Of a stretch of 35,145 nt of DNA, positions 21,949 to 34,869 are shown piece after piece. The position numbers and the translations under genes are program-made. Positions within the stretch are counted from its first letter, which is position 1, and the number at the start of each line of letters is the position of its first letter. The stretch lies in assembly GCA_017432665.1 (NCBI GenBank), contig JAFRIS010000022.1:1-35145 (forward strand), in the 5' to 3' direction. The stretch is from Bacilli bacterium (GTDB taxonomy: Bacteria; Bacillota_I; Bacilli_A; RF39; UBA660). The notes under the pieces were generated by a model. That model was not told the origin of the DNA. It ran no database searches and saw nothing but the letters and a program-made list of their open reading frames with translations.

Positions 21949-24900
21949 CTATTCATCAGACATTAACTTAGTTAATGCAGCTTTACCTTTCTTAATTACA
22001 TAACCAAAGCCTGGTTCTACTTCTGCTCTTAAAACTCTAGCATTAGTAGTAACTTTAAGAGTAAATTGATTACTAATACCATTACCTAGCCAAATACCTT
22101 CAGCAAGGTCAGTGCTACCTTTATACCATGGTTCGAAATTAAGATTCTTAATTGTATCAATAACATCTACAACAATTAAACGGATATTACCATCAGCCTT
22201 AGCTGAAGTAATTAGATTAGTAAAGTCCATCTTCTCAGTCGGATCCATCTTACCTAATAAAGATCCCATACCTATAATCATTACAAATAGATTTTTCTCT
22301 TCGTTCTTTTCCTCATGGAATTTATTAAAGTAAGCGATTAATTCATCAATCTTATCATTACCATATTTTATTTTTTCACTACTAATATCGTTAAGAACAC
22401 TATTTGGATCTATTACTAAACATTCAGTATTATTAATAGTTAATATATTATTAATAAATCCTGTAAGGAACTGTGGTTCAGAAGTAATATCATCTCCTGT
22501 AATATTGTAGATATATTTATCTCTTAGATTAATAGCAGCTATTTCTAATGTTTCTTTCTCTACACCAGCAGGTACAGTATTGATAGATCCTAAATAATCT
22601 GAAACAAATTCCTGATTTACTACCTCAGGTAAAATAGGTATCTTAATTGCTTTATAATCACAAATTTCATTTAATTTATTACTAATTACTTTAATGTAAT
22701 CAGTCATCTTTTCTTCAGTGTAAGAATATGCTGTTTGGAATTCATAAATAGCATCTAAAGCAATAAGTCCACGACCAAATGATTTAGATGGTTCTTTCTT
22801 TCTTACACCAGGAAGTACTGATGAATAATCCATTGGATCGTTAAATTGTAAAACAACATTTTGCTTGAAGTTTTGTCTCAAACGATAACGAACTGTATTA
22901 GGACCATTAGTACTAAGAATAAAGACAACACCATATTTTAAACAGTCTCTAGTCATTTGACCTAAGATATCTTCATAATCAGCATAAGTTTCAATAAATG
23001 CTTCAACATTATTGATAACTACTACTATCATTGGTATTTGTTTACCACCATGGTGAATATAGAAGTCATATGAACCATTATAGTCTACAAATATTTTCTT
23101 TCTTTCTTCAATAGTAGCTGCTAAAAATTTAAATAAATTAGCAATTTTTTCTTCATCATTTGATAGCATTACTTCTCCTACATGAGGAGCTTCTTTAAAC
23201 ATTGTTAAAGTCTCTGCACCGAAATCCATAATATAAAAGTTAACTTCTTTAGTATCATGAGTAGAAATACTAGAGTAGATAATACTTGATAACATTAATT
23301 CTTTTCCACTACCAGCAGCACCAAAAACAATTGTGTTTCCATCGGCAGATAACGGTAATGTTAAGATATTCTGTCTTTGATTATCAGGGTCATCATATTC
23401 TCCAATAATTGGATTAATAATATTTCTAGTTGCCTTATAATTATATTTTTCTTTTAACCTATCAATATAGATAACATCAGGAATTCTATCTAACCATAGT
23501 TGGTCAATAGATACATTTTCATTTCTTGCTTGATCAACAATATATCTAATAATACTTGTTACTTCTTCACCTTGTGAAGGAGCAGCTATTTCATTATTCT
23601 TAGTATCTAAAGATTTTATTATTCCACCAACATTATCAACAATATTGATAGCTTGATCAACTTTTTTCTTTCTCTTTTCTGTTGGATAATATTGAGCACC
23701 TGCCCAAGCCGCTTGTCCCATAGCAAACAATTCATTATAACCAACTTGTAGATAGAATCTACCAGTAGTTTTTAATTCTGCGGCATCAGGACATTTAATC
23801 ATATCCATTGAGTCTGATTTATCTTGAACCCTTAAACAGATTCTAAACTTAGAGTTTGACCAAATTTGATCATTAACAACACCACTAGGCTTTTGAGTTG
23901 ATAGAATCAAGTGAACTCCAAGCGAACGTCCAATACGAGCAGTTGAGATTAGTTGATCCATAAATTCTGGTCTTTGATCCTTTAATTCCGCAAACTCATC
24001 AGAAATAATGAATAAATGTGAAATTGGCTTATCTACTAGACCTCTACGATATAGACTCTGATATTTATAAATATCAATAGTACTTTCATTTAGTTTATCA
24101 CGAGCTTCATTGAATAATCTTTGTCTCTTACGTAATTCTGATTGAATTGAAGCAAGTGATCTATTCATTTCAACAGTATCTAAGTTCGTAATAGTACCAG
24201 CTAAATGTGGTAGTTTAATTCCGGTTTCTTTATTTTCAAAAGCTCCTGTTAAACCTCCACCTTTGTAGTCAATAAGTACAAATGATACTTCATATGGATG
24301 ATAATTTAAAGCCATTGATAAAATATAAGTAATAATAAACTCTGATTTACCTGAACCAGTCATACCAGCAATTAAACCATGTGGCCCATGCGCTTTTTCA
24401 TGTAAATCTAATTTAAATAATTCACGAGATTTATCAACACCAACTGGTGCTTGTAATGACTTAGTAGGATCATTACTCTTCCATCTATTCAAGATATTTA
24501 ATTGGTCTATCATACCAACATTATACATTTCAAGGAATGAAATACTTTGTGGTAAAGTACGATTCTCTCTAGCAATATCTATTGGTATATTAGCAATAAT
24601 CTTACAGCATTCGTGCATATCTAGAGTTGGATCAAAATCAGCAACAAATTCTTTTTGTTTATTAGATACTAATTCGCTTTCAAATACCCCAGATTTTTTA
24701 TCACCAATACTAATGAAAGTCTTACATTCATTAGGTATATTTACTAATCTTGGACTAATTACAATCATACTGAAACCATAATTAACTTGCATTTCAGAAA
24801 CATCTTTTACTAGTTCTATATCTCTTACTAATTTATAATCATCAGTGATAATCATATAATATGGCTTATAGTGATGATAATCAACTTGGCTTAGTTCCAT

Positions 24901-26517
24901 TTTTCCGTTAGTATCAACAAATTTTCTACTTTGAATTTCTTTTTCTAACTCTAAAGATATTTCTTTTGCCTCATCTAAATTAGTAGCAAAATATCTAAAA
25001 GTACGATTATTATTCCAGTTATGTGGTGCTACTTTCATAAAGTCCCAATTTTCTTCGTTTTGATCATTAGTTAAAATAACTATCTTTAAATCTTCATAAC
25101 TATGATAAGCTAACATCTGAAGAATTAATCCTTCAATAAAGCCTTGTTTATTTAAACCAGTACCAATAATTGCGACTATATTCTTTTGGATAAAGTTAAG
25201 AGAAATAGGCACATTTTCCAAGACTTTAGAAGTAGACCCAATTTCATACACTTCTTTTAATAAGTCATCATCTTTTAATGAGAAATGTTCTTCAGGGGCA
25301 TTAATACTTCCACGAAGTTCGGTACTACCTACTCCCAATCTCAAATCAAGGAAGTCTTCCTGTTCTAATTCTCTTTCCCATAAACTTCTTTTCTTTTGAT
25401 AAATAATTTCTTTAGTTTGAGACAATGGTAAATAGTTATCAATTAAGATTTGTCGCTGAATCTTAATTTCCGTTTGGATTTTTTCTTTCTTACTCTCTAA
25501 ATATTCATGATATTTCTTTAATCTTTCTTCTTCTCTCTTTTTTCTTTGTTTCTTCTGATATCTTCTTTGTAATGTAGGCCACAAAAGCATGGTTGCTAAC
25601 ATAGCAAATGACATTAATAAAGTTGGGATAGCAGGTCCTAAATCCATAGTACCATTAATAACACCCATTAAAGCATTATATCCCATAGTCATAGACATCA
25701 TACCCATAGTAAGCATAGGTCCAATAGTGAATATGGCAGGTGTCTTATCTTCCTCTTCTTTTCCTGGAGGAGGATCAATAGTAATTACTGCATCTTCGAT
25801 ACCTGTTTTAAATCTCGGAGCACGATAAAAATAATCATCTTCTCTATAGAACTCAATTCCTTCTTCATCTGGATTATCAAATTCTTTTTGTTTTTGGACA
25901 AAGTCACCAACAACTTCAAAGGAAGTTTCGTTTATTTTTAGATGATTTATTATATTATTAATAATAATTGTATCTTTCATCACTACTATTTTTAATCCCA
26001 TGATGAAAACGATATCGCCATATTCTAATTCTCTAGATGTAATTGCTGAATTATTAACATATGTACCATATTTACTATTTAAATCATGAATTATCCAAGT
26101 TCCGTTATTATAAACTAGTTTAGCTTGTTGTCTAGAAACTAATGGATAATTATAAATAATATCTGCTCTATTGTCTGTACCGATTAAAAGTTCTGTTTTT
26201 CCAACAGGTCTTAGTTTCATAATGTTATTCTCAGATGATGGTGAACAATATAAAATAACAAACTCGTTATCAGTATTAATCTTTAAGAAGTATAGGCAAT
26301 AATCTCTTAAAATTGCTGAATCAACTTCTTTTTCACCTGACATAATTTTAGTTTCAAAGTCACTTTTTATTTTCCATTCACCGTTGTATTCTTCAACATT
26401 GATAAGGTTTCTAGTGTTCCCTAGATAATCGTTATCTGTGATCCAATAGTTACCAGCTACATTATTAGGTAATAAAAAGTTGTAGATTTTTTTCTTCTTG
26501 ATTAGTCTAACAATCAC
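21949..26517 (-). CDS. essC: EssC/YukB-type FtsK-SpoIIIE ATPase of the T7SS
   Basis: A 1522-residue T7SS motor of full length. Residues 1-85 and 87-185 form two FHA-type domains (second: GTDNRAD, SRQQ, NSKYGTYVNN); 260-315 hold two membrane segments, then a coiled coil. Three ATPase domains follow. D1 has Walker A GMTGSGKS (718-725) and Walker B IISDEF (837-842). D2 has Walker A GAAGSGKE (1066-1073) but a weak Walker B, VINNVE. D3 (1350-1522) has no Walker A (VIDPNSV). The start is GTG with GGGGTGAT upstream. It leads the locus; EssB, EssA and EsaA genes are not in the window. Confidence 0.95.
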   Translation of the reverse strand: MIVRLIKKKKIYNFLLPNNVAGNYWITDNDYLGNTRNLINVEEYNGEWKIKSDFETKIMSGEKEVDSAILRDYCLYFLKINTDNEFVILYCSPSSENNIMKLRPVGKTELLIGTDNRADIIYNYPLVSRQQAKLVYNNGTWIIHDLNSKYGTYVNNSAITSRELEYGDIVFIMGLKIVVMKDTIIINNIINHLKINETSFEVVGDFVQKQKEFDNPDEEGIEFYREDDYFYRAPRFKTGIEDAVITIDPPPGKEEEDKTPAIFTIGPMLTMGMMSMTMGYNALMGVINGTMDLGPAIPTLLMSFAMLATMLLWPTLQRRYQKKQRKKREEERLKKYHEYLESKKEKIQTEIKIQRQILIDNYLPLSQTKEIIYQKKRSLWERELEQEDFLDLRLGVGSTELRGSINAPEEHFSLKDDDLLKEVYEIGSTSKVLENVPISLNFIQKNIVAIIGTGLNKQGFIEGLILQMLAYHSYEDLKIVILTNDQNEENWDFMKVAPHNWNNNRTFRYFATNLDEAKEISLELEKEIQSRKFVDTNGKMELSQVDYHHYKPYYMIITDDYKLVRDIELVKDVSEMQVNYGFSMIVISPRLVNIPNECKTFISIGDKKSGVFESELVSNKQKEFVADFDPTLDMHECCKIIANIPIDIARENRTLPQSISFLEMYNVGMIDQLNILNRWKSNDPTKSLQAPVGVDKSRELFKLDLHEKAHGPHGLIAGMTGSGKSEFIITYILSMALNYHPYEVSFVLIDYKGGGLTGAFENKETGIKLPHLAGTITNLDTVEMNRSLASIQSELRKRQRLFNEARDKLNESTIDIYKYQSLYRRGLVDKPISHLFIISDEFAELKDQRPEFMDQLISTARIGRSLGVHLILSTQKPSGVVNDQIWSNSKFRICLRVQDKSDSMDMIKCPDAAELKTTGRFYLQVGYNELFAMGQAAWAGAQYYPTEKRKKKVDQAINIVDNVGGIIKSLDTKNNEIAAPSQGEEVTSIIRYIVDQARNENVSIDQLWLDRIPDVIYIDRLKEKYNYKATRNIINPIIGEYDDPDNQRQNILTLPLSADGNTIVFGAAGSGKELMLSSIIYSSISTHDTKEVNFYIMDFGAETLTMFKEAPHVGEVMLSNDEEKIANLFKFLAATIEERKKIFVDYNGSYDFYIHHGGKQIPMIVVVINNVEAFIETYADYEDILGQMTRDCLKYGVVFILSTNGPNTVRYRLRQNFKQNVVLQFNDPMDYSSVLPGVRKKEPSKSFGRGLIALDAIYEFQTAYSYTEEKMTDYIKVISNKLNEICDYKAIKIPILPEVVNQEFVSDYLGSINTVPAGVEKETLEIAAINLRDKYIYNITGDDITSEPQFLTGFINNILTINNTECLVIDPNSVLNDISSEKIKYGNDKIDELIAYFNKFHEEKNEEKNLFVMIIGMGSLLGKMDPTEKMDFTNLITSAKADGNIRLIVVDVIDTIKNLNFEPWYKGSTDLAEGIWLGNGISNQFTLKVTTNARVLRAEVEPGFGYVIKKGKAALTKLMSDE

Positions 26518-30810: not shown

Positions 30811-31551
30811 TTACATAGTTTTATAGCGAACTTCTACCAAATATAAACCCTCTGCTGGTGCGGTTTTACTAGCTTTAGTTCGATCTTTCTTTAAAATTAT
30901 CTCTTGTACTTCGTTTGGTTTGATCTTTTCTTCACCAATTTTTATTAATAAGCCTACCATATTTCTTACTTGATAACGTAAAAAACCATTGCCAGTAAAG
31001 GTAATTATAATTTTACCATGATCTTCTTTAATAACTGCTTTAGTTATCTTTCTAATACAGTTTTCTTTATCTTTATTATCAGTCACAAATGATCTAAAAT
31101 CATGTTCTCCTATGAAATATTTAATTGCTTCTTTCATTTTTTCTACATTTAATTTGTAATTATATTGAAAAACATAATTTCTTTCTAATGGATTATATTC
31201 ATTAGTATTAATAATATATTGATATGTCTTACTTTTAACATTATATCTAGCATGAAATGTATCACTAACTACTCTAGTTTCAATTACATGAATATCATCA
31301 GGTAAATTAGAGTTCATTGCTCTTTTTAATTTCTTTTCAGTAATATTAACATCAATATCCGCATGACCATATTGAGCTAAAGCATGAACTCCTTTATCAG
31401 TTCTTCCTGTCGCTACTAAATTAGTCTTTTTACCATTATTAATCTTAGTTAATGCTAATTCCATCTTTTCTTGAATAGTTTCTCGCCCTTTTTGAGATTG
31501 GAATCCACTATAATTTGAGCCATCATATGAAAACTTAATTAAATATCTCAT
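30811..31551 (-). CDS. truA: tRNA pseudouridine synthase A
   Basis: A 246-residue TruA, which makes pseudouridine at positions 38-40 of the tRNA anticodon arm. The catalytic Asp52 is in ATGRTDKGVHA; other blocks are YDGSNYSGFQ at the N-terminus, FHARYNVKSKTYQY and GNGFLRYQVRNMVG. The length is normal. It starts 8 bases after the second ECF-like ATPase gene, where ecfT would be expected in the standard order. Confidence 0.97.
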   Translation of the reverse strand: MRYLIKFSYDGSNYSGFQSQKGRETIQEKMELALTKINNGKKTNLVATGRTDKGVHALAQYGHADIDVNITEKKLKRAMNSNLPDDIHVIETRVVSDTFHARYNVKSKTYQYIINTNEYNPLERNYVFQYNYKLNVEKMKEAIKYFIGEHDFRSFVTDNKDKENCIRKITKAVIKEDHGKIIITFTGNGFLRYQVRNMVGLLIKIGEEKIKPNEVQEIILKKDRTKASKTAPAEGLYLVEVRYKTM

Positions 31552-31559
31552 AAGCCCTC

Positions 31560-32258
31560 CTATACATGTTTATAAATATCTTTAATAATATCTCTAATAT
31601 CATTATGATAATCTATTTTTACATTATACTTTTTCTTTGCTTTATATGTAAATTCTACTATTTCAGGTACCTTAATATTGTTTTTAATTAGAGCATCAAC
31701 ATCCTCTAATACTCTTCTAGTACCCTCCATAATAAGTTTTTTATTCTGTATTATTATCACATAATCAGTATATTTATATAAAACATTACTATCATTTGTA
31801 ATAAATACTGCAGTTTTATTAAATTTTTCTTTAATCTTTCCAAGAAAAATCATTAATTTCTTTTGATTTTTTAAATCCAGCTTAGTAAAAGGTTCTTCAA
31901 ATACTAAAATATCTGGATTAGAAAGTAAAGCTATCGCGATTTGTAGTAGTTTTTTCTCTGATTCTGATAAAGTAGTTACATTTCTATCAATGTCTATTTT
32001 ATTTAAACCTACTATTCTCAAAGAATCTTTAATTTTCTTTGCCTTATCTCTTAAAATCAAGTTCTTTCTTTCTACTTCTCCAGTCATATATTCATAAACT
32101 GTATTATCAAAGTAATTATATTGAAAATCTTCTCCAATAATGCTTACTTTATCTTCTGCAGATAAAAGATTTATTATTTCTTTTCTATCATCAGTAATAA
32201 TACCGTTTATACCACTATCTTTAATATTGAAAACCAGTTTATTTTTCTTTATTTCCAT
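31560..32258 (-). CDS. Degenerate EcfA2-like ATPase without a Walker A motif
   Basis: A 232-residue EcfA2 (CbiO) relative by position and by its C-terminus (NNIKVPEIVEF...). The ATPase motifs are damaged: the P-loop region reads SGINGIITDDRKE (about 15-27), with no G-x4-GK-T; the signature is LSESE (97-101); the H-loop His is Asn155 (FITND). The Q-loop Gln46 and a Walker B with a Glu pair (VFEEP, Glu122) remain. It should not bind ATP normally. It overlaps the EcfA1-like gene by 10 bases. The frame is intact, which argues for a retained role rather than decay. Confidence 0.85.
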   Translation of the reverse strand: MEIKKNKLVFNIKDSGINGIITDDRKEIINLLSAEDKVSIIGEDFQYNYFDNTVYEYMTGEVERKNLILRDKAKKIKDSLRIVGLNKIDIDRNVTTLSESEKKLLQIAIALLSNPDILVFEEPFTKLDLKNQKKLMIFLGKIKEKFNKTAVFITNDSNVLYKYTDYVIIIQNKKLIMEGTRRVLEDVDALIKNNIKVPEIVEFTYKAKKKYNVKIDYHNDIRDIIKDIYKHV

Positions 32259-32926
32259 AGGATATCCACCATCCTATCTTGATCTAGTTCAATGTTAGAT
32301 ATTAAATCATAATCTTTTAGTTTTACTGATAAATCTATCATAAAAGGCACTTCTAAACCGGCTTTGTTGATAATATTATCTTTTTGTAGTACTTCTAGTG
32401 GCTCACCTTCTAATATTATCATCCCATCATCTATGATATAAAGATAATCTGTTAATAATGATTCTTCTAAATGAATTGTAGTAGTAACCACTGTTAATGC
32501 ATATTTAGACTGGTAATCTCTTAAGAATTTAAAAATACTTTTTAATTCTTCATATTTTAGATAATTTCCTATACTATCTAATAGTAATACTTTAGGTCTT
32601 TTTGATAAAGCAAGCGTAATTTGAACCAATATTATTTCTTTTTTAGATAAATTATTAATTGATTCTTTAGAAATACTCTTTATTTTTAAACCTTTTAGCA
32701 AATAATTTATAAATTCTTGATCATTATTTTGATAAGTCAATTCTTCTAATATAGTATTTTTACTAACCCTTAATTCGAAAGGTATTACTGCCTGTGAAAA
32801 ATTATTAATATGTTTTAATGTTCTAATTAGTGTCGTTTTACCACTATTATTAGAACCAGAGATAGTATAAAATGTATTTTCATAAAAGCCAATATTAAAA
32901 TTTTTAAGTTCAATTATCTTTTTCAT
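32249..32926 (-). CDS. Degenerate EcfA1-like ATPase without catalytic Glu
   Basis: A 225-residue EcfA1 (CbiO) relative. Walker A is intact (GSNNSGKT, 24-31) and the His switch is present (His152, TIHLEE). The Q-loop Gln is not seen (VIPFELR), the signature is LSKKE (93-97), and Walker B reads VLLLDS, with Ser118 in place of the catalytic Glu. The C-terminus keeps the ECF form (AGLEVPFMIDLSVKL). It should bind but hardly hydrolyse ATP. GGGAGGT precedes the ATG. It follows the SDR gene by 34 bases. Confidence 0.87.
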   Translation of the reverse strand: MKKIIELKNFNIGFYENTFYTISGSNNSGKTTLIRTLKHINNFSQAVIPFELRVSKNTILEELTYQNNDQEFINYLLKGLKIKSISKESINNLSKKEIILVQITLALSKRPKVLLLDSIGNYLKYEELKSIFKFLRDYQSKYALTVVTTTIHLEESLLTDYLYIIDDGMIILEGEPLEVLQKDNIINKAGLEVPFMIDLSVKLKDYDLISNIELDQDRMVDILWK

Positions 32927-32945: not shown

Positions 32946-32972
32946 TATAAAAGCCAACTATTAGTCGGCTTT
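32946..32972 (-). terminator. Weak terminator or attenuator after the SDR gene
   Basis: An AAGCCGAC/GTTGGCTT stem (one G-U pair) at the SDR stop, with only a short U run on the minus strand (TTTTAT). Readthrough into the ECF-like genes is likely. The + strand has the stronger U run but no gene ends there. Confidence 0.5.
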
Positions 32973-33716
32973 TTTCTTTTGAATTCTATATGTTTGTCTT
33001 AATAAAAATTTATCTGATACGAAACGACTAAAGAATTTTGCCATTTTCATTGTAGTTCCTGGTATAATTAGCATTTTCTCTTTAAACATCTGGTCTATTG
33101 CATATTTCGCAACAAACGTACTCTTTAGAGGTTTTACTGCGAAATTAACTCCTGCGACATTATTGAAATTTGTATCTACTGGTCCAGGACATAATACTGA
33201 AACATGCACTTTAGTCTTCTTTTTCTTTTCTTCATAGTATAAAGCTTCACTTAATTGATACACATATGCTTTAGTAGCATAATAAGTACTCATTAAAGGT
33301 CCTGGTTGAAAAGCAGCAGATGATGCAACATTCAATATATATGTATCTGTATCTTTCTTTTCCATATCCTTTACTATTGATTTAGTTAAGATATGAACTG
33401 CCTTAATATTTGTATTTATTTGATCTAAATCTTTGTTTAAATCTGTATCAGTTAAATAGCCAAAATCCCCAAATCCTGCATTATTTATTAAAATATCTAT
33501 GTTTTCTTTTCTCGCAACTACATATAATTCTTTGACTTTTTGTTCATTAGATAAGTCTGCGACTATAATAGTTACTTTTGTTGGTAGTTGTTCTTGGATT
33601 AATTCTAGTTTTTCCTTATTTCTAGCTACTAAAATAAGTTCACATTTCATTGTAGCTAGATATCTAGCCATATCTAATCCAATTCCTGATGTCGCTCCTG
33701 TAATTAGTGCTTTCAT
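32961..33716 (-). CDS. SDR-family NAD(P)-dependent oxidoreductase
   Basis: A 251-residue classical short-chain dehydrogenase: TGATSGIG (6-13) for the cofactor, NNAG (78-81), and Ser132-Tyr145-x3-Lys149 as the catalytic set. It resembles the YqjQ/DltE-like group of unknown substrate. An Arg after the second strand (VARNKEK) suggests NADPH. It lies between the rplQ region and the ECF-like genes, which is not the standard content there. It has its own extended -10 (TGATATAAT, -10 at 33737-33742). Confidence 0.92.
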   Translation of the reverse strand: MKALITGATSGIGLDMARYLATMKCELILVARNKEKLELIQEQLPTKVTIIVADLSNEQKVKELYVVARKENIDILINNAGFGDFGYLTDTDLNKDLDQINTNIKAVHILTKSIVKDMEKKDTDTYILNVASSAAFQPGPLMSTYYATKAYVYQLSEALYYEEKKKKTKVHVSVLCPGPVDTNFNNVAGVNFAVKPLKSTFVAKYAIDQMFKEKMLIIPGTTMKMAKFFSRFVSDKFLLRQTYRIQKKKAD

Positions 33717-33765: not shown

Positions 33766-33794
33766 CAAAAAAAATCTATGCAATGCATAGATTT
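33766..33794 (-). terminator. Terminator after the 192-residue protein
   Basis: An AAATCTAT/ATAGATTT stem with a self-complementary loop and eight U on the minus strand. It abuts the stop at 33793. Confidence 0.85.
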
Positions 33795-34371
33795 ATCTTA
33801 TAATTCTTGCTGGGTTATTTTCATATTCTTCTCTTCTTTTTTCAAGTTCATCAAGGATCTCATCAACTTTTCTTTTTTTTCTTTCTTCTACTCTGCGTTC
33901 AAAGTCTTCAAAATCTTTGTCTGTTATACACAAATTATATTCCTTTTCATCTTCATCCACTGCCAAATTATTTTTATTGATGTAGCGTTCAACTGCCTTA
34001 AAGTCGCTTTTAGCAGTAGATACACTTGTGATTACTCTAAAAACTAACTTCATTATATTTTTAGCATCTTCCATCATTTCTTTATCATCATTGTATCTCT
34101 TTTCAAAGTCCCTATCAATTGATATTTTAGTAGGTGAATCTTTATCATTTGTTACTTCAATATAACCTATTTTCTCAATCTTTTTACTTTTATCTATTAG
34201 TTTAGTCACCAATATTGTTATTTTTTGGTCGATTTCAGTATCATTTTCTTTGATATATATATCACTTTTTTTATCAATATGAACTTGTAAAACACCATAG
34301 GCTGTTTCCATTATGTTATCATCCAAGCCGTCTAAATATGTAATTTTGTCCAAACTTTTACTTTTTTCCAT
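33793..34371 (-). CDS. Unknown charged protein, 192 residues
   Basis: Family not recognised. The N-terminal half has strands and a GYIEVTN turn; the middle helix is about 95-130; the C-terminus (about 150-190) is a long Glu/Lys/Arg-rich coiled coil. There is no signal peptide or membrane segment. GGGTGATATT lies before the ATG. It lies 75 bases after rplQ, past that gene's terminator. Also an extra gene in the standard rplQ-ecfA spacing. Confidence 0.75.
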   Translation of the reverse strand: MEKSKSLDKITYLDGLDDNIMETAYGVLQVHIDKKSDIYIKENDTEIDQKITILVTKLIDKSKKIEKIGYIEVTNDKDSPTKISIDRDFEKRYNDDKEMMEDAKNIMKLVFRVITSVSTAKSDFKAVERYINKNNLAVDEDEKEYNLCITDKDFEDFERRVEERKKRKVDEILDELEKRREEYENNPARIIR

Positions 34372-34446: not shown

Positions 34447-34869
34447 TTATTTCTCTTCCTTTTTAGTTCTTCTTGTTTTCTTTTCCTTTTTATCTTCTTT
34501 CTTAGTTTCTTGTTTTGGTTCTTCTTCACTAACTAATCTTAAAATAACCATTAATGAGTGATCTCCACGTCTTTCATCTACTTTTAATATTTGTGTATAA
34601 CCACCATTACGATTTTCATAACGTTTAGCTAAATCACTGAATACTTTTTCAACAGTGGCTTTATCGTTATGTAAGAATGCTAGAGCTTTACGACGAGATA
34701 CTAAATCTCCTTTTTTACCATAAGTAATCATTTTATCAACAAACTTACGAACTTCTTTAGCTCTAGTATCAGTAGTAGTAATACTTTCATTATTAATTAC
34801 TTGTTTAGTTAAAGTAGCAAGCATACTTCTTCTATGTTTATTATCTCTACCTAATTTTCTATATGCCAT
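34447..34869 (-). CDS. rplQ: 50S ribosomal protein L17
   Basis: A 140-residue L17: [20 protein letters not shown], the [19 protein letters not shown] block, and [25 protein letters not shown]. After residue 115 comes a Lys/Glu-rich tail (about 25 residues), longer than in most L17 proteins. It follows rpoA by 17 bases, the usual order. Confidence 0.97.

What the first reader, a model, noticed from the sequence alone, without database searches (positions are those of the whole stretch)
31560..32926. An ECF ATPase pair without EcfT, each subunit missing different catalytic parts
In most Bacillota the order is rplQ-ecfA1-ecfA2-ecfT-truA. Here both ATPase genes are in place but ecfT is absent: truA starts 8 bases after the second. 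The EcfA1-like protein keeps Walker A (GSNNSGKT) and the His switch but has Ser instead of the catalytic Glu and no Q-loop Gln. The EcfA2-like protein has lost Walker A and the His switch but keeps a Glu pair at Walker B. The losses are complementary, the frames are open, and the genes overlap by 10 bases, so this looks like a pair kept for another job (for example a scaffold or a nucleotide-bound switch) rather than two decaying genes.
Basis: partly seen in the sequence, partly recalled or inferred. Interest (0 to 1): 0.75.

Follow-up and report, generated by a model that had tools for sequence, protein, structure and literature searches.

The report
Degenerate ECF ATPase pair lacking EcfT
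In a large group of uncultured gut bacteria, the two engine proteins of a vitamin importer have lost their membrane partner and the parts that burn ATP, yet they are still kept as a pair with one likely ATP-holding site, so they have probably taken on another job.

Summary
The locus is real and not an assembly or sequencing artefact. The same A1-A2-truA arrangement occurs in 33 of 36 genomes of the window's genus. EcfT is absent from all 36 but present in all 23 other class members searched. No intact EcfA1 exists elsewhere in the genus, and neither S-component model tested reaches its cut-off. Both genes are under purifying selection (omega about 0.1 in an unsaturated same-genus pair) and both proteins fold confidently as EcfA-type ATPases.

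One motif reading is wrong. The A1 switch His is not kept: Ile sits there, and the nearby His is one residue later. "Complementary" losses is also imprecise. What survives lies in one composite site: A1 Walker A and Walker-B Asp plus A2 signature Ser/Glu and D-loop Asp, each 33/33. Catalytic Glu, Q-loop and His are nearly all gone.

Across the family EcfT erodes stepwise: recognisable, then a degraded 190-230 aa remnant, then absent. S components (PF12822) are nearly absent even where EcfT remains.

Best reading: a catalytically dead EcfA1-EcfA2 heterodimer, nucleotide-bound at one site, kept as a scaffold or slow switch. Partner and function are inferred, not shown. Relict decay remains a serious rival.

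The parts
32249..32926 (-). EcfA1-derived ABC ATPase (A1), 225 aa, catalytically degenerate
   Evidence: TIGR04520 best, 84.6 bits vs cut-off 315; best PDB match 8bms_A, EcfA1
32834..32857 (-). A1 Walker A GSNNSGKT (residues 24-31), retained in 33/33 genus genomes
32636..32650 (-). A1 signature position, LSKKE instead of LSGGQ/E (residues 93-97), lost
   Evidence: Gly-Gly 0/33
32573..32578 (-). A1 Walker B Asp117 (kept 33/33) followed by Ser118 in place of the catalytic Glu (Glu 2/33)
32474..32476 (-).
32303..32380 (-). A1 C-terminal domain core DN..NK.GL..PFMIDLSVKL.DY.L (residues 183-208), the most conserved stretch of A1
   Evidence: synonymous codon variation
32249..32258 (-). 10-base overlap of A1 end and A2 start (ATGGAAATAA), conserved in nearly all relatives
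31560..32258 (-). EcfA2-derived ABC ATPase (A2), 232 aa, P-loop lost
   Evidence: (TIGR04521 best, 84.9 bits vs cut-off 330)
32178..32204 (-). A2 region where Walker A should be (GIITDDRKE), lost in 33/33 genus genomes
31956..31970 (-). A2 signature remnant LSESE (residues 97-101); Ser98 and Glu101 kept 33/33, Gly-Gly lost
31875..31877 (-). A2 D-loop Asp128, kept 33/33
31563..31619 (-). A2 C-terminal helix (residues 214-232, ending DIRDIIKDIYKHV), the most conserved stretch of A2
31552..31559 (-). 8-base gap between A2 and truA where ecfT is missing
30811..31551 (-). truA, conserved downstream neighbour
32961..33716 (-). short-chain dehydrogenase, upstream neighbour in most relatives, with or without EcfT
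   Evidence: PF00106, 1.6e-38

Best explanation
The two genes descend from the ATPases of a normal Bacillota ECF vitamin-transport module (EcfA1-EcfA2-EcfT). In this family recognisable S components are nearly absent, EcfT decayed and disappeared repeatedly, and the ATPase pair was kept in many lineages. SHOWN: orthology, genus-wide absence of EcfT and of an intact EcfA1, purifying selection, confident EcfA fold, and a lopsided pattern of conserved residues. INFERRED: the proteins still pair through their conserved C-terminal domains. They bind a nucleotide at one composite site (A1 P-loop and Walker-B Asp facing the A2 signature Ser/Glu and D-loop Asp). They cannot hydrolyse it at a normal rate because catalytic Glu, Q-loop Gln and switch His are gone there and the second site has no P-loop. 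The pair would therefore be a non-cycling, nucleotide-stabilised cytosolic scaffold or very slow switch acting on an unknown partner, no longer a transport motor.
For: ECF ancestry: TIGR04520/TIGR04521 are best models for the window proteins and match all 74 and 77 relatives; EcfA/CbiO top Foldseek matches; EcfA2 4mki_B is the top PDB sequence hit for A2; rplQ...truA context. EcfT absent: PF02361 over cut-off in 0/36 genus vs 23/23 other class genomes; a family-specific EcfT profile gives only partial hits of about 22 bits or less in the genus but rings in all 23 others. S components: PF12822 and PF07155 over cut-off in 0/36 genus genomes. No intact EcfA1 elsewhere: TIGR04520 best in genus about 183 bits vs cut-off 315. 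One-site pattern, 33/33 each: A1 Walker A and Walker-B Asp, A2 signature Ser and Glu, A2 D-loop Asp. Against that: A2 Walker A 0/33, A1 signature Gly-Gly 0/33, A1 D-loop 15%, A1 Glu 6%, A1 His 0%. On the TruA tree, A2 signature Ser changes 2 times and A1 Walker A 6 times, against 14 for A2 Walker A and 21 for A1 Glu. Selection: omega about 0.1 at low dS. Conserved C-termini vary synonymously. Precedents: EcfA-EcfA' closes on AMP-PNP without membrane subunits (PMC4820897), and Glu-to-Gln mutants hold the module closed and ATP-bound (PMC10368641).
Against: No partner, nucleotide binding or dimerisation was tested; complexes could not be predicted here. A2 has lost both signature glycines, so ATP sandwiching at the kept site may be weak. 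The pair evolves faster than TruA (dN roughly 2-9 times higher in same-genus pairs). About 70 of 193 order genomes, and 3 of 36 in the genus, show no pair.
Confidence: 0.5

Rival explanations
1. Relict in slow decay: S components and then EcfT were lost, the ATPases have no specific job, and they are on the way out, held for now by weak residual or pleiotropic constraint.
For: Stepwise erosion across the family: recognisable EcfT in 46, degraded remnant in 20, none in 44 other genomes plus all 33 in the genus. About 70 of 193 order genomes have no pair above the ABC background. A1/A2 evolve faster than truA, and T is very fast in some lineages. Shortening: window A1 is 225 aa and A2 232 aa against about 255-263 aa in most of the genus.
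Against: Frames open in all 33 genus loci; omega 0.075-0.14 in unsaturated T-less pairs with omega = 1 rejected; invariant C-termini and one-site residues kept at protein level; confident folds.
Confidence: 0.22
2. The pair still powers a transporter, but with a different membrane protein encoded elsewhere that has replaced EcfT and is too diverged or unrelated to detect.
For: EcfA pairs can serve more than one T partner: Listeria EcfA/EcfA' work with EcfT and with FmnA (PMC9973259). T-like proteins diverge beyond Pfam recognition in this family: the 190-230 aa remnants tested have no CbiQ hit yet align with EcfT by profile comparison.
Against: A family-specific EcfT profile that includes those remnants found only partial hits of about 22 bits or less in the genus. 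Hydrolysis residues are gone and the Q-loop Gln is gone in 32/33 of both subunits, so a motor role is unlikely.
Confidence: 0.2
3. The frames are kept for gene-expression reasons, such as translational coupling into truA, rather than for the proteins.
For: The A1/A2 10-base overlap and the tight A2-truA spacing are conserved, and the A1 Trp and A2 Met-Glu are dictated by the overlap.
Against: Other conserved residues vary synonymously, conservation follows ATPase motifs, and lineages without a detectable pair exist.
Confidence: 0.04
4. Assembly or sequencing artefact.
For: Metagenome-assembled genome of 71% estimated completeness.
Against: The same arrangement in 33 genus genomes and in 69 of 80 genome contigs records.
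Confidence: 0.01

Closest known systems
Group II ECF transporter ATPases EcfA1/EcfA2 of Bacillota
   Same: Sequence family, gene pair and order before truA, fold, and C-terminal domain
   Different: No EcfT, no S component at the two models tested, one nucleotide site destroyed, hydrolysis residues lost
Heterodimeric ABC transporters with one degenerate nucleotide-binding site (e.g. BmrCD, MsRv1273c/72c, MRP1)
   Same: Asymmetric loss of one composite site while the partner site is kept (abstracts)
   Different: Those keep one catalytically competent site and their membrane domains; here no site keeps both catalytic Glu and His, and no membrane domain is known
ECF module mutant 2EQ (both catalytic Glu changed), solved closed and ATP-bound (8bms)
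   Same: Loss of catalytic Glu expected to favour a closed ATP-bound dimer (PMC10368641); 8bms_A is the top fold match of A1
   Different: Engineered, two intact binding sites, EcfT present
Isolated EcfA-EcfA' heterodimer (e.g. 4hlu, bound to ADP)
   Same: A pair without membrane subunits that binds nucleotide (PDB title; PMC4820897)
   Different: Experimental sub-complex, not a natural EcfT-free state

Membership tests
ECF transporter (group II) | Two EcfA-type ATPases in the rplQ-truA region | tested here: met
ECF transporter (group II) | EcfT transmembrane coupling subunit | tested here: not met
   0/36 genus genomes over cut-off by Pfam; nothing convincing by a family-specific profile
ECF transporter (group II) | At least one S component in the genome | tested here: inconclusive
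   PF12822 and PF07155 over cut-off in 0/36 genus genomes; one borderline hit in G029 (30.3 vs 30.7 bits). BioY, ThiT, QueT and other S families not tested; several genomes are incomplete
ECF transporter (group II) | ATP hydrolysis | not testable with these tools
   Catalytic Glu and switch His lost in A1; no assay
EcfA1 equivalog TIGR04520 | Score over curated cut-off 315 bits | tested here: not met
   84.6 bits; still the best-scoring model
EcfA2 equivalog TIGR04521 | Score over curated cut-off 330 bits | tested here: not met
   84.9 bits; still the best-scoring model
ABC ATPase fold, EcfA type with C-terminal domain | Nucleotide-binding-domain fold closest to EcfA/CbiO | tested here: met
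   AF2 pLDDT 92.2 and 93.3; Foldseek top hits EcfA/CbiO
Degenerate-site heterodimeric ABC protein | One composite site retained, the other lost (by sequence motifs) | tested here: met
   Motif table
Degenerate-site heterodimeric ABC protein | Retained site is catalytically competent (by sequence motifs) | tested here: not met
   A1 catalytic Glu 2/33, A1 His 0/33, A1 Q-loop 1/33

The most novel reading that the evidence does not exclude
A whole family of gut Bacilli has turned the ECF ATPase pair into an EcfT-free, non-hydrolysing pseudo-ABC heterodimer that uses a single nucleotide site as a structural or sensing element, reached repeatedly after loss of S components and stepwise decay of EcfT.
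Probability: 0.45. Interest if true: 0.75.

Novelty: new variant of a known kind. Interest (0 to 1): 0.6.

Why it matters
ECF modules are regarded as motors for S components. Here the module appears to outlive its recognisable S components, and the ATPase pair then outlives the membrane subunit, repeatedly and with the same half of the nucleotide machinery kept. If the pair is a true pseudo-ATPase heterodimer, the family is a natural series of intermediates for how an ABC motor becomes a non-transport protein, with living examples of each step. It also warns annotation pipelines: calling these genes EcfA and inferring vitamin import would be wrong for many gut genomes. Five open-library paper searches and word searches in two RF39-related genome papers turned up no description of this state; subscription literature was not searched.

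Tried and rejected
Artefact or single-genome oddity: rejected by 33 genus orthologues and 69/80 genome contigs records. Relocated EcfT: rejected within sensitivity by PF02361 and by a 56-row family EcfT profile. Second intact EcfA1: rejected. His switch kept: rejected by alignment. Conserved C-termini as RNA or overlap constraint: rejected except for A1 Trp224 and A2 Met-Glu, which the overlap dictates. SDR as replacement partner: not favoured, because it sits upstream of A1 in EcfT-bearing relatives too. Most within-genus omega values are unreliable in size because dS is saturated; the argument rests on G004-G029 and G132-G205. Tests of correlated loss of T and catalytic residues by independent pairs leaned in the expected direction but were too few to be significant (7 pairs). 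A plasmid search gave nothing. Two RF39-related genome papers do not mention ECF in the words searched.

Full report
WHAT IS THERE. On the minus strand the window carries rplQ (34447-34869), a 192-aa unknown (33793-34371), an SDR (32961-33716), A1 (32249-32926), A2 (31560-32258), truA (30811-31551), rplM and rpsI. A1 and A2 overlap by 10 bases and truA begins 8 bases after A2. The best NCBIfam models are the EcfA1 and EcfA2 equivalogs, far below their cut-offs (84.6 of 315 and 84.9 of 330 bits).

MOTIFS. Aligned to canonical EcfA1/EcfA2 from other class members, A1 keeps Walker A (G24SNNSGKT31) and the Walker-B Asp117, and has Ser118 for the catalytic Glu. It has LSKKE for LSGGE, Pro for the Q-loop Gln, and Ile151 for the switch His. 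A2 has no Walker A, E-E at Walker B, LSESE for the signature, Asp128 kept in the D-loop and Asn for the His.

GENUS-WIDE STATE. Both genes occur in 33 of 36 genus genomes (not in G022, G024, G025) and A2 is followed directly by truA in all 33. EcfT (PF02361) is over cut-off in none of 36 but in 23 of 23 other class genomes. A 56-row family EcfT profile gives only short hits of about 22 bits at most in the genus and strong hits in all 23 others. TIGR04520 finds no canonical EcfA1 in the genus (best about 183 bits). PF12822 and PF07155 find no S component over cut-off in the genus; G029 has one borderline hit. In genome contigs, 80 loci from MAGs, many of them from ruminant, rabbit and other gut samples and including Candidatus Faecimonas and Candidatus Scybalousia, show A2-truA in 69, an unrecognised protein between them in 10, and EcfT in 1. 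From memory these names belong to GTDB order RF39; I could not verify that here (NCBI places Faecimonas in Bacilli incertae sedis).

FAMILY-WIDE SERIES. All order genomes searched carry the same family code, with many genera. Loci from 147 genomes, including the genus and outgroups, were tabulated. Outside the genus, A2 is followed by a recognisable EcfT in 46 family genomes, by an unrecognised 189-233 aa membrane protein in 20, and by truA in 44. The unrecognised protein is a degraded EcfT: the profile of the 20 aligns with that of intact family EcfT over 221 columns, probability 98.9%, E 1e-17. An Arg-Gly coupling motif of the EcfT type is seen in 27/46 recognisable EcfTs and 1/20 remnants. 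On a TruA tree, presence of EcfT or remnant versus none needs 17 changes, at least 7 of them on well-supported branches. This sampling was by A2 similarity to the window, so it is not a census. In the profile search of 193 order genomes about 70 have no match above the background of other ABC ATPases; I counted these by eye, and since two real pairs score at background it is an upper estimate of loss. PF12822 S components exceed cut-off in 2 of 193 order genomes although 41 have EcfT over cut-off.

WHICH HALF SURVIVES. In an ABC dimer each site joins one subunit's Walker motifs to the other's signature and D-loop (established knowledge). In the genus, A1 Walker A, A1 Walker-B Asp, A2 signature Ser and Glu, and A2 D-loop Asp are each 33/33. 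A2 Walker A is 0/33, A1 signature Gly-Gly 0/33, A1 D-loop Asp 15%, A1 catalytic Glu 6%, A1 His 0%. Other EcfT-less genera lean the same way. On the tree, A2 signature Ser changes 2 times, A2 D-loop 5 and A1 Walker A 6, against 14 for A2 Walker A, 15 for A1 D-loop, 21 for A1 Glu and 18 for A1 His. So one composite nucleotide site is favoured and hydrolysis is not. The most conserved stretches are the C-termini of both proteins. Synonymous codons vary there, so the constraint is on the protein; the exceptions are A1 Trp224 and A2 Met-Glu, dictated by the overlap.

SELECTION. Most within-genus comparisons have saturated dS. In the unsaturated same-genus pair G004-G029, omega is 0.112 (A1), 0.101 (A2) and 0.041 (TruA); in the EcfT-less pair G132-G205 it is 0.075 and 0.142. 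Omega = 1 is rejected in each. The proteins evolve faster than TruA but are clearly constrained.

STRUCTURE. AlphaFold2 models of the window's A1 and A2 have mean pLDDT 92.2 and 93.3. Foldseek places ECF ATPases first for both: 8bms_A for A1, 5x3x and 4mki for A2. Only monomers could be predicted.

MECHANISM. Shown: an EcfT-free, selected EcfA1-EcfA2 pair with one-site conservation, in genomes without an S component detectable by the two models tested. Inferred: heterodimer formation, nucleotide binding at that site, near-absence of hydrolysis, and a scaffold or switch role. Two published facts make this plausible: EcfA-EcfA' without membrane subunits closes on AMP-PNP (PMC4820897), and catalytic-Glu mutants hold the ECF module closed with ATP bound (PMC10368641). 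Rivals are slow decay and a hidden replacement membrane partner; Listeria shows that an EcfA pair can serve two T subunits (PMC9973259). Neither is excluded.

VERDICT. Function remains unknown experimentally. New variant of a known kind; interest 0.6.

Noticed in passing
order genomes: EcfT is over cut-off in 41 of 193 order genomes, but PF12822 S components in only 2. The family seems to run EcfA-EcfA-EcfT modules without recognisable S components. Other S families were not searched.
   Followed up: partly
L141:3674-4330, L152:3597-4253, L180:891-1574 and 17 similar loci: Degraded EcfT of about 190-230 aa, no Pfam CbiQ match in the three tested, still overlapping A2; intermediates between intact EcfT and its absence.
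   Followed up: yes
window 33793..34371 (-): 192-aa protein of unknown family between rplQ and the SDR, no Pfam match; a protein of similar size sits there in some other genera, homology not tested.
   Followed up: no
window 32961..33716 (-): SDR gene inserted between rplQ and ecfA1, present in many relatives with or without EcfT.
   Followed up: partly
L240:1960-2841 (G061): A 293-aa membrane protein lies between ecfA1 and ecfA2 in a genome that keeps EcfT; part of that A2 reads as N.
   Followed up: no
L018:2948-3616 and similar loci after truA in several genus genomes (L010, L012, L013, L014, L024): Lysine-rich protein of over 220 aa with a hydrophobic hairpin directly after truA, no Pfam match for the one tested; not present after truA in the window.
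   Followed up: no
G149, G177, G203, G226 and G164 (L154, L168, L167, L176, L218): Closely related genomes (TruA about 90% identical) whose EcfT is only about 30-69% identical, and G164 has no EcfT after A2: very fast EcfT decay.
   Followed up: partly
window 21949..26517 (-): 1522-aa open frame, the largest in the window; not examined.
   Followed up: no
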